A stretch of DNA of 64,000 nucleotides from Mariprofundus aestuarium. GTDB taxonomy: Bacteria; Pseudomonadota; Zetaproteobacteria; Mariprofundales; Mariprofundaceae. Below are positions 54,687 to 60,055 of the stretch, piece after piece (position 1 is the stretch's first letter; every line of letters begins with the position of its first letter). The position numbers and the translations under genes were made by a program. The stretch is from positions 1,605,001 through 1,669,000 of the forward strand of contig NZ_CP018799.1 in NCBI RefSeq assembly GCF_002795805.1, read 5' to 3'. Below the pieces are notes generated by a model. The model searched no databases and was not told where the DNA came from. It saw nothing but the letters and a program-made list of their open reading frames with translations.

Positions 54687-56435
54687 GTGTTCAACTTACG
54701 ACGCATCCAGACTTTCATTTCTCAGGCAACGCCCCTGCTTGTTGCTGCAGTTCTTTGCTTGCCCGCTTCAGCTCAAGCAGAAGCTGTCGGCCAGTTCTCC
54801 GCAACCCTAAACAAGGTTGATCATCTCCGAACAGGTGCAACCGAAGCGGTAGAGGCAAAGGTCGGCAGTGGTGTGGAACTTAAGGATCTCGTCACAACAC
54901 TGGAGCGATCCCGGGCACAGGTTACCTTCGTGGACGAGACAGTGCTCAGGATTGCCTCCTCCTCTCAGGTTGAAGTTACCGAATTCATGTTTGACAACAG
55001 TAAGCTGCAGAGTGGCTCCATCAAAATGATACGTGGCACACTGCGCTCAATCGTTCACCATACCGATGCTGGAGATGCCCAGTTTGAAGTGAGAACCCCT
55101 ACGGCGGTAGCAGCAGTTCGAGGAACGGATTTTTTTACTATTGTGATGGGAAACATCACCCGATTTGTCTGCAATCAGGGACAGGTTGAGATCAGGAATA
55201 TCAATCCCGGCGTGGCTGGCGCGCAGATGTGTGCTATCGGACAAACCGTGGATGTCAGTCAGGGCCAGCCCCCAACACCGCCAAGCCCTACCGACCCAAA
55301 GCTTCTTGATCAGCTGATTAAGGCTACAGACATAGCTACGCCAACAGCGGGTGATCCCTCCCCTCCACAGGGTCCTGGAGGAGTGGAGGAAGTCGTAGCG
55401 GCAACTGAAGGAACGGGTGTCGGCGCAGCTGCAACAGCTCTGGGCGTTGCAGCCATAGGTGCAGTTGCAGTAGGTAGTGTCTCTACTGGCGGAGTGCCAA
55501 CAGGTGCAATTCCGGGTGCTGTCACAGTTACTGTTGAGGACTCCATCTATGTGATGCAGGCATGGATGCCACCTCCTGCAGGGGGAGCAATCACAATGAC
55601 CTATGGTGTTCCTTCAGGTTCTGATGCCGGCAATGTCATGACTGTCACACGCAATGCAGGTGGCAATATCACAAGCGTCAGAATTCAGGGTACGCATGCA
55701 ACTAACTTACCTTTCGCAACAGCTACGGGAGCATTCGACTACACCTTCAACACTGCGGTGGCCACCAATGAGCTTGCACTCGGTGGTGCCGCTACAGATA
55801 GCCCCGCTGCAGTGGGAGCAGGTCCCAACTCGGTCGTCATCAACCAGATTGGAAACCTACCCGCTGTAACAGGTTATCAATATGCCTCACTATTCCACTG
55901 GGGTGTCGAGACAACCGCTACGCCAGGAAACTGGCTGGCAGGTATCGGCGTATTCGGCACACTGACACCTGTAGCTTCGGTTCCTGCTGTAGGCACTGCC
56001 ACCTATGCCGGCCTTGCCCAAGGTTGGTACTATCCGCCCGCAGCCACGCCACCAGCAGGTCTTCCTACAGTAGAATCACTCTTCACAGCTGACCTGACCG
56101 CCAATGTAGACTTTGCTTTAGGGGAGATGGCAATCACCACTATAAACTCACAAACATCACCAGTTGGTGGTCCTCTAGCATACACCGCGGCTCCAAACCT
56201 GAATCTGGCCGCGCCAGTAGTGCTTCTTAACGCCGGAGCCAATCGCAACACATTTACAGCCATAGAAACTGTTACAAATCCAGCAGGCATGGCAGGTACT
56301 ATTCAGGGGGGGTTCTTTGGGCCAGCCACCAAGGCACCTCTAACAGGAGCTAACAATGTACCAGCCAATATCGGTGGCAGCCTTACCCTTACGGGTGGCG
56401 GAGCTTCAATGGTGGGTGTATTCGTCGGTCAATAA
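54687..56435 (+). CDS. Secreted FecR-domain protein with C-terminal TbpB-like barrel
   Basis: A 582-residue exported protein. The signal peptide (about 1-32, ending SASAQA-like LPASAQAEA) has no clear lipobox. A FecR-type domain spans about 55-160 (VRTPTAVAAVRGTDFF), then a Pro-rich linker and a Gly/Ala segment (about 230-270). The C-terminal part ends with GTIQGGFFGPATKAPL, then a GGSLTLTGGGASMVGVFVGQ tail, which resembles the last strands of TbpB-type barrels found in Slam-dependent proteins. The start is GTG behind AAGGAGGG. The next gene is a Slam-like translocator, so this protein is a candidate cargo. That is inference; the barrel call needs structure prediction. Confidence 0.8.
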   Translation: MFNLRRIQTFISQATPLLVAAVLCLPASAQAEAVGQFSATLNKVDHLRTGATEAVEAKVGSGVELKDLVTTLERSRAQVTFVDETVLRIASSSQVEVTEFMFDNSKLQSGSIKMIRGTLRSIVHHTDAGDAQFEVRTPTAVAAVRGTDFFTIVMGNITRFVCNQGQVEIRNINPGVAGAQMCAIGQTVDVSQGQPPTPPSPTDPKLLDQLIKATDIATPTAGDPSPPQGPGGVEEVVAATEGTGVGAAATALGVAAIGAVAVGSVSTGGVPTGAIPGAVTVTVEDSIYVMQAWMPPPAGGAITMTYGVPSGSDAGNVMTVTRNAGGNITSVRIQGTHATNLPFATATGAFDYTFNTAVATNELALGGAATDSPAAVGAGPNSVVINQIGNLPAVTGYQYASLFHWGVETTATPGNWLAGIGVFGTLTPVASVPAVGTATYAGLAQGWYYPPAATPPAGLPTVESLFTADLTANVDFALGEMAITTINSQTSPVGGPLAYTAAPNLNLAAPVVLLNAGANRNTFTAIETVTNPAGMAGTIQGGFFGPATKAPLTGANNVPANIGGSLTLTGGGASMVGVFVGQ

Positions 56436-56459
56436 GCTGCAACGACTGAACATTGAGGG

Positions 56460-56485
56460 AGCGGCCTTGTAAGGAGGCCGCTTTT
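56460..56485 (+). terminator. Attenuator-like hairpin between FecR and Slam-like genes
   Basis: AGCGGCC and GGCCGCT around a nine-base loop, followed by TTTTC. The short T-run suggests partial termination before the Slam-like gene. Confidence 0.7.
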
Positions 56486-56499
56486 CTAGGGAGGGGAAA

Positions 56500-57867
56500 A
56501 TGCTTGTTCGGATGTTGGGGACACTGGTGATATGCGCCATTCCTTTTTCTGGTTATGCCGAAGAGTCCGTATCTACATCCATCCCGACAGCAGGTGTTGC
56601 ATCGTCCCCCGAGAAAACTCATCTTAATAACTACTCCCAAGCCACCCCTGAGGAGCTTGCACAGGTCGCCACACAGCTGCTGGTAGAGGGAAATCCTGAA
56701 CTGGCAGGCATTGTAGTGGCAGAGCTGCTAAAGAAACCGAGCCCACCTATGCAGGCATTGTTCATCGCAGGAAAACTGGCTGAACTGCGCGGTGACTGGA
56801 AAACAGCCATCAAGTTCTACCGCACCATGCTTGAACGTGATTCATCTGTTCTGCGCGTGCGACTGGATCTGGCCCGCGCGCTGCTCATGATAGGCGATAC
56901 CGAGGCATCCCAGCACCATTTCCAGCGTGTACTCGGCGAGCCGGGACTACCTGAAGGCGTACGCAAAAATGTGCTTCTGTTTATCAACCAGATCGAACGC
57001 CTCACCTTCAGCCAGATGCTCTCATTTGAAATCCTTGGCGACAGTAACGTTAATCAGGCTACGGCAAGTGAAGCTGTCATCATTGGCGGCCGTCGCTTTG
57101 TCCTCAGTCCCACTGCAAGACAGCAGAGCGGCAAAGGCATTGGTATCAACTGGCAGGGACAGTACCGCTTTGGTGAATCGCGGCAATTCAGCCTGCGCGG
57201 TATCGTACAGCACCAGAACTACCCATCTACCAACCAGTACAACCTGACCTATCTGATGGGATTTACGGGCTGGACGATGCAGTGGAGTCCGGGCCACTCA
57301 ACATCCTTTGAAGCCGGCTGGCATGCTTCATTCTATGGCGGCCGCGACCTGTTCGACGGCGCAGCATTCCGCATCTCTGACCTCTATCGCACGATTGGCG
57401 GCTGGACCGTGAATCCTGCCATCGAGAGCAAACAACTGCGTTATCCCGATTACCCACTTCGCGATGGCTGGCAGCACTGGCTGACACTGGATACCTCCAA
57501 GGCTACCGCGAGTGGTATTGTGTGGAATGCTGGCGCAAGCATCGGGCGCAATAGCGCACGCGATGATATTTATAATTTCATCTCATCCGGAGCAAAAGCG
57601 GGCGTTTCCGCAGAGCTACCTTTGAAACTGAATGCCTCGTTGATGCTTGATTATCTGGAAACCCGTTATTCGTTGGCTGACCCCTTCTTTGGTAAAAAAA
57701 GGCAGGAAAAGAAGCAATCGGTAGAGCTTGCCATTACCACGCTGGCGTTAAGCGTGGGCGGCTTTGCACCTAGAATCATGCTTGGTCATGTGAAAAATCG
57801 GTGTAACATTGATCTGTATCGGTATCAGAGAACATATGGCAAGGTATCATTTGTACGCGATTTTTGA
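56500..57867 (+). CDS. Slam-like outer-membrane translocator (TPR plus DUF560 barrel)
   Basis: A 455-residue protein with a signal peptide (about 1-21), TPR-like helices (about 45-160; LRVRLDLARALLMIGDTEAS and HHFQRVLGEPGLPEGVRKNV), then a beta-barrel domain to the end. The barrel starts FEILGDSNVNQATAS and ends RIMLGHVKNRCNIDLYRYQR plus a terminal FVRDF, both characteristic of the DUF560/Slam family. The length is close to known Slam proteins (about 480). Slams move surface or secreted proteins across the outer membrane and are often encoded beside their cargo, here the FecR/barrel protein 64 bases upstream. AGGGAGGGG is before the ATG. Confidence 0.85.
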   Translation: MLVRMLGTLVICAIPFSGYAEESVSTSIPTAGVASSPEKTHLNNYSQATPEELAQVATQLLVEGNPELAGIVVAELLKKPSPPMQALFIAGKLAELRGDWKTAIKFYRTMLERDSSVLRVRLDLARALLMIGDTEASQHHFQRVLGEPGLPEGVRKNVLLFINQIERLTFSQMLSFEILGDSNVNQATASEAVIIGGRRFVLSPTARQQSGKGIGINWQGQYRFGESRQFSLRGIVQHQNYPSTNQYNLTYLMGFTGWTMQWSPGHSTSFEAGWHASFYGGRDLFDGAAFRISDLYRTIGGWTVNPAIESKQLRYPDYPLRDGWQHWLTLDTSKATASGIVWNAGASIGRNSARDDIYNFISSGAKAGVSAELPLKLNASLMLDYLETRYSLADPFFGKKRQEKKQSVELAITTLALSVGGFAPRIMLGHVKNRCNIDLYRYQRTYGKVSFVRDF

Positions 57868-57918
57868 TCTCTATTTTGTTAATCGGGCAAATTATCTCCT
57901 GCCCTGAGGGGTGGCGTT

Positions 57919-57984
57919 ATGGCCGGAAACAACAGCAATGAAACACCCACTGACCTGCTTCTTGTCTTCATGAGGCTGGAGTAA
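57919..57984 (+). CDS. Possible 21-codon leader ORF before the cyclase
   Basis: ATG with an AGGGG site upstream, encoding MAGNNSNETPTDLLLVFMR plus two residues. Its TAA is separated by one base from the ATG of the cyclase (TAATATG). The geometry suggests translational coupling to the CHASE2 gene. Confidence 0.4.
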   Translation: MAGNNSNETPTDLLLVFMRLE

Positions 57985-57985
57985 T

Positions 57986-60055
57986 ATGCGGGCAGTTAAG
58001 CAAAAAAGCCCCTACTTCCTGCTGGCCTCGATGATTGTTGCCGTTGCCATCTTTGTAACGGTCAGTCCGCCCATGTTTGTCGACTACCTGGAGTCCAAGA
58101 CGTTCGACATCCGCACCTTGCTGCGCGGTGAACGGTCAGTCAGGCCTGACATTGCCATCGTTGCCATCGATGACAAGACACTGGAGCAACTCGACCTGAA
58201 TATCTGGACTCGGGAATATATGGCCGCACTGGTCGATAAACTTGCATTAATGCAACCGAAGGTGATCGGCATTGATTACCTCTACCAGCTTCCGGAGATG
58301 AACAAAGGGCTGCAATCAGTCCGCGAACTCAATCTGGCTTACCAAGCCTTGCCACAGGCGGATAAGGCTTTTCTTGGAAAGCTGCAAACACTGGAGCAGC
58401 TCAACGATGTTGATGCGGCTTTGATTAGGGCTGTCAAAAAGGCAGGAAATGTTGTTCTGGCCTTTGCTCCGCATGTATTCGAAGCCATGTCATCGGTTGA
58501 CAGCAAGCAGGTATCTCAGCTTCCGGAGTACATGCCATGGTATGCATTCATGCTGACCAAGCCTGGCCCAGCCTACAAACCAGTAGTGGCTCAAACAGCC
58601 CTGACCCCATTTGAAGGACTGGCAGAGGCGGCTGCATCTATCGGCCACGTCTACTCCCTTTACGATCAGGATGGAGCCATTCGCTGGGAGCCTCTTTACG
58701 TCAAAATCGGTCCGGATATTTATCCTTCGTTTGGACTTGAAATCGCAAGAATATTCAAAGAACTGAGACAGCAGGATGTGAAGGTAATCACTGGTGACCG
58801 GATCATTCTGGGAGAGAAGATTGACCTGCCAACGGATATTTCCGGCCGTATCCTGATCAACTATCCGGGCAAGCGCAAAAGGTTCACCACCTATTCGGCC
58901 ATCAATATCCTTGAAGGAACCATTCCCGTATCTGAACTGAAAGAGAAAATTGTATTGATCGGTGCCACAGCGCTTGGCACTGGCGATATCCATGTCACGC
59001 CATTTACCGAACTAGCCGGTGTTGAGAAGCAGGCCACTGTGGTTGAAAACATTCTCAGTCTCAATTACATGGTGAAAGAGGAGATGACTACGCTGATTGA
59101 TATAGGCGCGATCATCTGTTTTGCCTTCGTTATGGCGCTGGTCGTCCCCTACTTCGGTGCATTCGCAAGCGGCCTCTTCTTCGGATTTCTTCTTATTGTC
59201 TATCTCGGACTCACTCAGTACGCATTTGTGGCCCATAACATCTGGGTGCATGTGGTTGTGCCAGCACTCACCTTGAGCATTCTTTATACAACCTTGACGA
59301 CCTACCGCTTCTTTACTGAAGAGAACAGAGCAAGGCATATTCGCTCGATTTTTTCCAGTTATACCACTGAGAAGGTAGTTGATGAGATGATTGAACATCC
59401 AGAAATGCTGAAGCTTGGCGGCGTGCGTAAAAATGTAACCGTACTTTTTTCTGATGTGCGCGGTTTCACCACCTTTTCGGAGAATCATACGCCCGAAGAG
59501 GTAGTAGAGGTATTGAACGAATTCCTGGCGGCAATGACCGATGTGATTATGCACTGGAATGGAACGCTCGATAAATTTGTCGGTGACGAAATTATGGCTT
59601 TCTGGGGCGCTCCGGGGGAACAGGAAAACCATGCTGAACTGGCCACGCACTGCGCGATGCATATGCTGCATCGCCTCTATGAGCTACAGGAGAAGTGGGA
59701 ATCTGAGGGTAAGGAGAAACTGGATATTGGTATTGGTCTGAACAGTGGTGAGGTAGTTGTCGGCAATATCGGCTCCGAATCCAAGAAGATGGATTACACG
59801 ATCATTGGCGATGCGGTAAACCTGGGTGCACGCGTTGAGGCCTTAACCCGCAACTTCAATGTCCATCTGATGATCACCGAGTTCACCTTAGCCGAGATCA
59901 GCCACCTGTTGCCTGATGAAAATGGCAAAGGAAAAGAGGGTGGTCTGGGACACCTGCAACCCAGGCGTTTGGACGAGGTTAAGGTTAAGGGTAAACAGAA
60001 GCCTGTTGTTGTTTATGAGTTGGTTGACCTGGAACTGGATTCACGCCCCCTTTAG
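57986..60055 (+). CDS. CHASE2-domain class III adenylate cyclase
   Basis: A 689-residue membrane enzyme. After an N-terminal TM comes a CHASE2 periplasmic sensor (about 35-340), then three TMs (about 365-450), then a class III cyclase catalytic domain (about 485-670). Catalytic features are VTVLFSDVRGFTTFSE with a metal Asp, GTLDKFVGDEIMAFWGAP with the second Asp and an adenine-selecting Lys, and DYTIIGDAVNLGARVEA with the transition-state Asn/Arg. It is predicted to make cAMP. It lies downstream of the FecR and Slam-like genes and is coupled to a tiny leader ORF, suggesting that outer-surface or envelope events are reported through cAMP. Confidence 0.9.
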   Translation: MRAVKQKSPYFLLASMIVAVAIFVTVSPPMFVDYLESKTFDIRTLLRGERSVRPDIAIVAIDDKTLEQLDLNIWTREYMAALVDKLALMQPKVIGIDYLYQLPEMNKGLQSVRELNLAYQALPQADKAFLGKLQTLEQLNDVDAALIRAVKKAGNVVLAFAPHVFEAMSSVDSKQVSQLPEYMPWYAFMLTKPGPAYKPVVAQTALTPFEGLAEAAASIGHVYSLYDQDGAIRWEPLYVKIGPDIYPSFGLEIARIFKELRQQDVKVITGDRIILGEKIDLPTDISGRILINYPGKRKRFTTYSAINILEGTIPVSELKEKIVLIGATALGTGDIHVTPFTELAGVEKQATVVENILSLNYMVKEEMTTLIDIGAIICFAFVMALVVPYFGAFASGLFFGFLLIVYLGLTQYAFVAHNIWVHVVVPALTLSILYTTLTTYRFFTEENRARHIRSIFSSYTTEKVVDEMIEHPEMLKLGGVRKNVTVLFSDVRGFTTFSENHTPEEVVEVLNEFLAAMTDVIMHWNGTLDKFVGDEIMAFWGAPGEQENHAELATHCAMHMLHRLYELQEKWESEGKEKLDIGIGLNSGEVVVGNIGSESKKMDYTIIGDAVNLGARVEALTRNFNVHLMITEFTLAEISHLLPDENGKGKEGGLGHLQPRRLDEVKVKGKQKPVVVYELVDLELDSRPL

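What the first reader, a model, noticed from the sequence alone, without database searches (positions are those of the whole stretch)
54687..60055. FecR-barrel protein, Slam-like translocator and CHASE2 adenylate cyclase in one locus
Seen directly: three consecutive plus-strand genes, a FecR-domain exported protein whose last 60 residues look like TbpB-type barrel strands (GTIQGGFFGP, then a GGASMVGVFVG tail), a TPR plus DUF560 barrel with the Slam ending, and a CHASE2 class III cyclase. From known biology, Slam proteins transport cargo bearing C-terminal 8-stranded barrels and are usually encoded next to that cargo. Inference: the FecR protein is a secreted Slam cargo, and the cyclase is a co-regulated sensor or reporter. 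A FecR domain on a Slam cargo and its link to cAMP would be new as far as I know.
Basis: partly seen in the sequence, partly recalled or inferred. Interest (0 to 1): 0.75.

Follow-up and report, generated by a model that had tools for sequence, protein, structure and literature searches.

The report
Surface-export cargo wired to cyclic-AMP sensor
Three neighbouring genes in the iron-oxidising bacterium Mariprofundus encode a surface-export gate, the one protein it appears to export, and a membrane enzyme that makes the messenger cyclic AMP, which suggests a way for the cell to couple what it exports through its outer membrane to a signal inside.

Summary
In detail: a FecR protein, a true Slam/SlipAM translocator and a CHASE2 class III cyclase lie in one operon-like row. 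The FecR protein ends in a TbpB-type Slam-cargo barrel: a profile made only from cargo beside Slams in other bacteria finds it (E=1e-8; ortholog 2e-16; best of 1000 shuffles 7.8 bits against 31), and the joint alignment finds TbpB (6e-23). In 23 Mariprofundus genomes the one Slam and the one barrel protein occur together, only in the same four, with the cyclase always next. FecR-barrel proteins beside a Slam recur in two other proteobacterial families without the cyclase. So 'FecR as the N-terminal domain of a Slam cargo' is supported, and I found it described nowhere. The FecR/CHASE2-cyclase link is not new: S. meliloti NsrA-CyaK (NsrA is FecR+TPR+barrel), Campylobacterota clusters and the Burkholderia biofilm operon share it. 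New here: the TPR outer-membrane proteins in ordinary [OMP]-[FecR]-[CHASE2 cyclase] operons of Zetaproteobacteria and Nitrospirota are remote Slam homologs (barrel-only E=4e-23, controls >0.02). The window is a variant of that module in which FecR became the translocator's own cargo. Secretion and FecR-to-CHASE2 signalling are inferred, not shown.

The parts
54687..56435 (+). FecR-domain Slam-cargo protein (582 aa); N-terminal Sec-type signal (residues ~1-32, ...LPASAQA)
   Evidence: ORF; Pfam; orthologs 59-60% identical in three genomes
54888..55190 (+). FecR domain (residues 68-168)
   Evidence: PF04773 E=7.4e-14
55413..55496 (+). conserved hydrophobic Ala/Gly-rich stretch (residues 243-270), role unexplained
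   Evidence: hydropathy and orthologs
55893..56432 (+). C-terminal TbpB-type (Slam-cargo) barrel domain (residues ~403-582)
   Evidence: independent Slam-cargo HMM E=1.1e-8, shuffles negative; A7 profile vs PDB TbpB E=6.2e-23
56500..57867 (+). Slam (SlipAM/DUF560, type 11 secretion outer-membrane protein), 455 aa
   Evidence: PF04575 E=1.4e-17 over cut-off; the only one in the genome
56647..57006 (+). periplasmic TPR domain of the Slam (residues ~50-169)
   Evidence: Pfam TPR/TPR_Slam; AF2 helices
57007..57864 (+). 14-stranded outer-membrane barrel of the Slam (residues 170-455)
   Evidence: AF2 pLDDT 80.5, 14 strands
57986..60055 (+). CHASE2 class III nucleotide cyclase (689 aa), catalytic residues D490, K530, D534, N612, R616 present
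   Evidence: Pfam; invariants; residue check; PDB adenylate cyclases E to 5e-44
58037..59122 (+). periplasmic CHASE2 sensor domain with flanking transmembrane helices
   Evidence: PF05226 E=3.8e-53; hydropathy
59429..59878 (+). cytoplasmic class III cyclase catalytic domain
   Evidence: PF00211 E=2.7e-25

Best explanation
This is a one-cargo type 11 (Slam) secretion unit built onto a FecR-CHASE2 adenylate cyclase signalling module. The FecR protein crosses the inner membrane by Sec, and its C-terminal TbpB-like barrel docks on the TPR/barrel of the Slam. The FecR part is then displayed or released outside, or held in the translocator. In the periplasm the FecR domain meets the CHASE2 sensor of the cyclase. 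Loading, export or jamming of the cargo therefore changes cAMP synthesis and, through a CRP-family regulator, transcription. Shown by computation: the families, the barrel, the exclusive Slam-barrel pairing, conservation of the trio, and its descent from OMP-FecR-CHASE2 operons. Inferred: secretion, FecR-CHASE2 contact, and the direction of signalling.
For: SlipAM over cut-off with TPR helices and exactly 14 barrel strands in the AF2 model (pLDDT 80.5), as described for Slam1 in PMC5449769. Cargo barrel by independent profile and by TbpB in the PDB, E=6e-23. One Slam in the genome. One barrel protein per genome, in exactly the four genus members with the Slam and always the FecR protein. The trio is contiguous in all four, although G053/G054 have different flanking genes. 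In the cyclase and FecR trees the window group is sister to a Zetaproteobacterium with the plain OMP-FecR-(lipoprotein)-cyclase layout. 17 of 24 informative nearest cyclase loci have a Slam-family OMP and a FecR gene directly upstream. S. meliloti NsrA, required for signal perception through CyaK (PMC7529298), is FecR+TPR+barrel and abuts the cyclase gene. The genome has two CRP-type regulators. FecR genes also sit beside Slams in G231, G239 and G359, two of them with barrels.
Against: No experiment. The AF2 model of the barrel region from two sequences was useless (pLDDT 36). TbpB_B_D alone is below Pfam's cut-off. A conserved hydrophobic stretch (residues 243-270) between the FecR domain and the barrel could anchor the protein in the inner membrane, which would conflict with export. 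If export is complete, FecR leaves the periplasm and could no longer touch CHASE2. In G231, G239 and G359 FecR and Slam occur without a nearby cyclase, so the two links can be separate.
Confidence: 0.6

Rival explanations
1. NsrA-like outer-membrane receptor: the Slam-like protein is no longer a translocator but a sensor. The FecR protein stays in the periplasm, plugs or docks on it through its barrel, and passes an outside stimulus to the CHASE2 cyclase.
For: Domain set and order parallel NsrA-CyaK. Remote Slam relatives next to FecR-CHASE2 pairs have short FecR partners without any barrel, so a Slam-fold OMP can serve FecR-CHASE2 modules without an obvious barrel cargo.
Against: The window's OMP is a standard SlipAM, far closer to cargo-exporting Slams than to the module OMPs (barrel-only E=6e-28 vs 1e-4). 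NsrA's barrel is not detectably related. The acquired barrel is the export signal of Slam cargo.
Confidence: 0.25
2. Ordinary type 11 secretion pair that merely lies next to a cyclase: the FecR protein is a secreted effector or adhesin, and the cyclase is only co-transcribed or accidental.
For: FecR-barrel cargo without a cyclase in G231 and G239.
Against: FecR and this cyclase share ancestry and adjacency beyond the Slam. The trio stays together in two different genomic contexts.
Confidence: 0.13
3. Classical FecI/FecR/FecA-type cell-surface signalling (FecR as anti-sigma factor).
For: A FecR domain is present.
Against: No sigma factor or TonB receptor among the neighbours searched. The protein begins with an export signal, not a cytoplasmic anti-sigma domain. 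FecR E. coli family model only E=0.0097, far below its cut-off.
Confidence: 0.02

Closest known systems
Slam / type 11 secretion system (SlipAM, DUF560) with TbpB-, haemophilin- and fHbp-type cargo (PMC5449769, PMC8406197, PMC12282271)
   Same: TPR + 14-strand barrel translocator; neighbouring Sec-exported protein with C-terminal TbpB-type barrel; barrel-pedestal-effector layout
   Different: The effector part is a FecR domain, absent from the ten published cargo architectures and from the main texts; the partner gene is a CHASE2 cyclase rather than iron or haem genes
S. meliloti NsrA-CyaK (PMC7529298, PMC13001267)
   Same: FecR + TPR + outer-membrane barrel next to a CHASE2 adenylate cyclase
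   Different: NsrA is one fused 1219-aa protein whose barrel is not detectably Slam-like; here FecR and the TPR-barrel are separate and FecR has its own cargo barrel
Campylobacterota CHASE2 adenylate cyclase clusters (PMC9239204)
   Same: CHASE2 cyclase, FecR protein and TPR protein gene neighbours, there with a cAMP phosphodiesterase
   Different: No Slam or cargo barrel reported; no phosphodiesterase in the window trio
Burkholderia BiofilmReg operon LysM-FecR / CHASE2 histidine kinase (PMC5192318)
   Same: FecR protein paired with a CHASE2 sensor
   Different: Kinase output, LysM anchor, no outer-membrane protein

Membership tests
Slam / T11SS outer-membrane protein | SlipAM (DUF560) barrel profile match | tested here: met
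   PF04575 64.6 bits, cut-off 22
Slam / T11SS outer-membrane protein | N-terminal TPR domain and 14-stranded barrel | tested here: met
   TPR profiles (TPR_Slam 31.1 bits, just under its 35.2 cut-off); AF2 seven TPR-like helices and 14 strands, pLDDT 80.5
Slam / T11SS outer-membrane protein | gene next to a barrel-bearing cargo | tested here: met
   FecR-barrel gene 64 bp upstream; adjacent in four genomes; only barrel protein of the genome
Slam / T11SS outer-membrane protein | transports cargo across the outer membrane | not testable with these tools
   needs experiment
T11SS cargo | C-terminal 8-stranded TbpB/FHBP-type barrel | tested here: met
   by profile homology; Pfam model alone below cut-off; structure model inconclusive
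T11SS cargo | Sec signal peptide | tested here: inconclusive
   hydrophobic N-terminus and LPASAQA by sequence and hydropathy; no dedicated predictor available
NsrA-CyaK-type receptor | FecR domain + TPR-barrel OMP + CHASE2 cyclase together | tested here: met
NsrA-CyaK-type receptor | barrel homologous to that of NsrA | tested here: not met
   hhalign E=0.49 against Slam profile, single NsrA sequence
FecI/FecR/FecA signalling | neighbouring ECF sigma factor and TonB receptor; FecR inner-membrane anti-sigma factor | tested here: not met
   neighbours are Tim44-like, zinc-ribbon and SnoaL proteins; neighbours farther off not scanned
CHASE2 class III cyclase | CHASE2 domain, transmembrane segments and catalytic residues | tested here: met
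   adenylate rather than guanylate specificity inferred from K530

The most novel reading that the evidence does not exclude
Slam-family translocators are a standing component of a widespread trans-envelope cAMP system (Slam-like OMP, FecR, often a surface lipoprotein, CHASE2 cyclase) in Zetaproteobacteria, Nitrospirota and others. The cyclase reads out whether a surface protein is being delivered through the translocator. In Mariprofundus the cargo and the messenger FecR have become one molecule.
Probability: 0.35. Interest if true: 0.82.

Novelty: new variant of a known kind. Interest (0 to 1): 0.62.

Why it matters
It adds FecR to the known effector domains of type 11 secretion cargo. It also points to Slam-like outer-membrane proteins outside the published T11SS clusters, including Nitrospirota. 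It gives a concrete gene set with which to test how an outer-membrane export event could be reported to cytoplasmic cAMP. CHASE2 domains have no known ligands in most systems; a FecR/Slam partner is a testable candidate input.

Tried and rejected
PDB search with the four FecR-cargo orthologs: no hit; the broader cargo alignment worked. Foldseek of the Slam model found only general barrels, best BcsC, a TPR-barrel exporter (TMq 0.42); no Slam structure among the hits. NsrA's barrel as a Slam relative: rejected. Spirochaete CHASE2 cyclases: no FecR and no full OMP next to them. Promoter/terminator scan gave nothing above shuffles.
Full report
Observation. The window lies in a 2,537,610-base single-contig genome. 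Two relatives with named contigs of identical length (G054:C11 = Mariprofundus sp. KV, 306,068 bp; G048:C3 = M. ferrooxydans PV-1, 1,418,196 bp) place it in Mariprofundus. Size and contig number fit M. aestuarium CP-5 (2.54 Mb, 1 contig; PMC8250860), and G047 fits M. ferrinatatus CP-8 (2.3 Mb); both assignments are inference.

The translocator. It is the only SlipAM protein of the genome. An AF2 model from 18 sequences (pLDDT 80.5) has TPR-like helices and exactly 14 barrel strands, the published Slam architecture (PMC5449769). A barrel profile from Slams outside the genus finds it with E=6e-28.

The cargo barrel. The genes next to Slams in other Proteobacteria mostly end in a GxFFGPxAxEvGGxF...G.F motif. 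A profile from 14 of these C-termini, containing no Mariprofundus sequence, hits the FecR protein and its orthologs over the last ~180 residues: 31 bits for the window and 45-57 bits for orthologs. The best of 1000 shuffles scores 7.8 bits, and the short FecR proteins of the genus do not match. The joint alignment finds TbpB C-lobes in the PDB with E=6.2e-23 and full coverage. Pfam's own TbpB model stays below its cut-off for this sequence alone, and the AF2 attempt failed, so the barrel rests on sequence-profile homology.

Exclusive pairing. Across 23 genomes of the genus the Slam occurs in four and a barrel protein in the same four, once each, always the FecR protein (a fifth weak hit has six stop codons). 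That co-occurrence has probability 1/8855 if random, without correction for relatedness. The trio is contiguous in all four; G053 and G054 have different neighbours on both sides, so it behaves as a unit. Gaps in the window are 64 and 118 bp, and terminator-like sites in the region are no more frequent than in shuffles.

FecR on Slam cargo elsewhere. In 23 other Slam-bearing genomes, FecR genes lie directly beside the Slam in three. In G231 an 899-aa FecR protein ends in a cargo barrel. In G239 a 1152-aa FecR protein ends in a TbpB_B_D match (E=3.4e-4), and all three FecR genes of that genome are within 7 kb of the Slam. In G359 a 416-aa FecR protein follows the Slam. None of these Slams has a CHASE2 gene nearby. 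Their FecR domains branch apart from the Mariprofundus group, which suggests independent fusions. The T11SS papers read here do not mention FecR in their main texts; supplements could not be read. No paper in the library holds both FecR and 'surface lipoprotein assembly modifier'.

The FecR-CHASE2 module. FecR-CHASE2 adjacency is the rule in the genus. Among the nearest cyclases in public genomes, 17 of 24 loci with enough upstream DNA have a TPR outer-membrane protein and a FecR gene just upstream, in Zetaproteobacteria, Nitrospirota and others. Often a lipoprotein-signal gene with Ig, fn3, beta-propeller or beta-helix domains, or a cAMP phosphodiesterase, lies in or beside the cluster. Those TPR proteins are remote Slam homologs: full-length hhalign E=5e-31; barrel-only E=4e-23 against Slams from outside the genus, with reversed, column-shuffled, TonB-receptor, porin and NsrA controls all above 0.02. 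The profile comparison used the six module OMPs from Mariprofundus; the others were found with a profile of these six. Pfam assigns them only TPRs or sub-threshold SlipAM. Cyclase and FecR trees both make the window group sister to a Zetaproteobacterium with the plain layout (the FecR branch has SH-aLRT 91, below the starred level). The simplest history is that a resident OMP-FecR-CHASE2 operon received a genuine Slam and its FecR gained the cargo barrel.

Known relatives and mechanism. S. meliloti NsrA, the outer-membrane protein needed for signal perception through CyaK (PMC7529298), is FecR + TPR + barrel fused, and its gene abuts the cyclase gene; that L115 holds nsrA-cyaK is inferred from its position, length and domains, because the record carries no annotation. 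Campylobacterota show CHASE2 cyclase, FecR, TPR and phosphodiesterase clusters (PMC9239204). Burkholderia pairs FecR with a CHASE2 kinase (PMC5192318). These support FecR as a periplasmic partner of CHASE2. I therefore propose that the FecR cargo's loading on, or export through, its Slam sets cAMP output. Whether the retained or the exported state is the active one cannot be decided here. A conserved hydrophobic stretch at residues 243-270 is unexplained and could either tether the protein or simply pass through.

Verdict. The cAMP link is a variant of a known module. The recurring FecR-barrel cargo and the Slam ancestry of the module's outer-membrane proteins are the new points.

Noticed in passing
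L136, L137, L143, L155-L165 (upstream of the CHASE2 cyclase): TPR outer-membrane proteins in [OMP]-[FecR]-[CHASE2 cyclase] operons of Zetaproteobacteria and Nitrospirota are remote Slam homologs not recognised by Pfam, often with a variable surface-type lipoprotein gene in the cluster.
   Followed up: partly
L153 5651-9005 and L117 7894-11248 (M. ferrooxydans PV-1): The CHASE2 cyclase of the OMP-FecR-cyclase operon is split into two ORFs (508 and 320 aa) about 870 bp apart; disruption or assembly error.
   Followed up: no
L125 7128-10444 (own genome, ~1.693-1.696 Mb): A second FecR-CHASE2 pair with a small FecR protein, a 283-aa protein with an OmpA-like ending and a CHASE2 protein without a strong cyclase match.
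   Followed up: no
L068 899-8288 (G239): Two Slam-like proteins flank two FecR proteins, one with a TbpB-type barrel: a FecR/Slam island without a cyclase.
   Followed up: partly
window 55413-55496: Conserved hydrophobic Ala/Gly-rich stretch between the FecR domain and the barrel region of the cargo.
   Followed up: partly
L064 6809-10079 (G359): A LolA-type lipoprotein carrier gene directly upstream of a Slam that is followed by a FecR gene.
   Followed up: no
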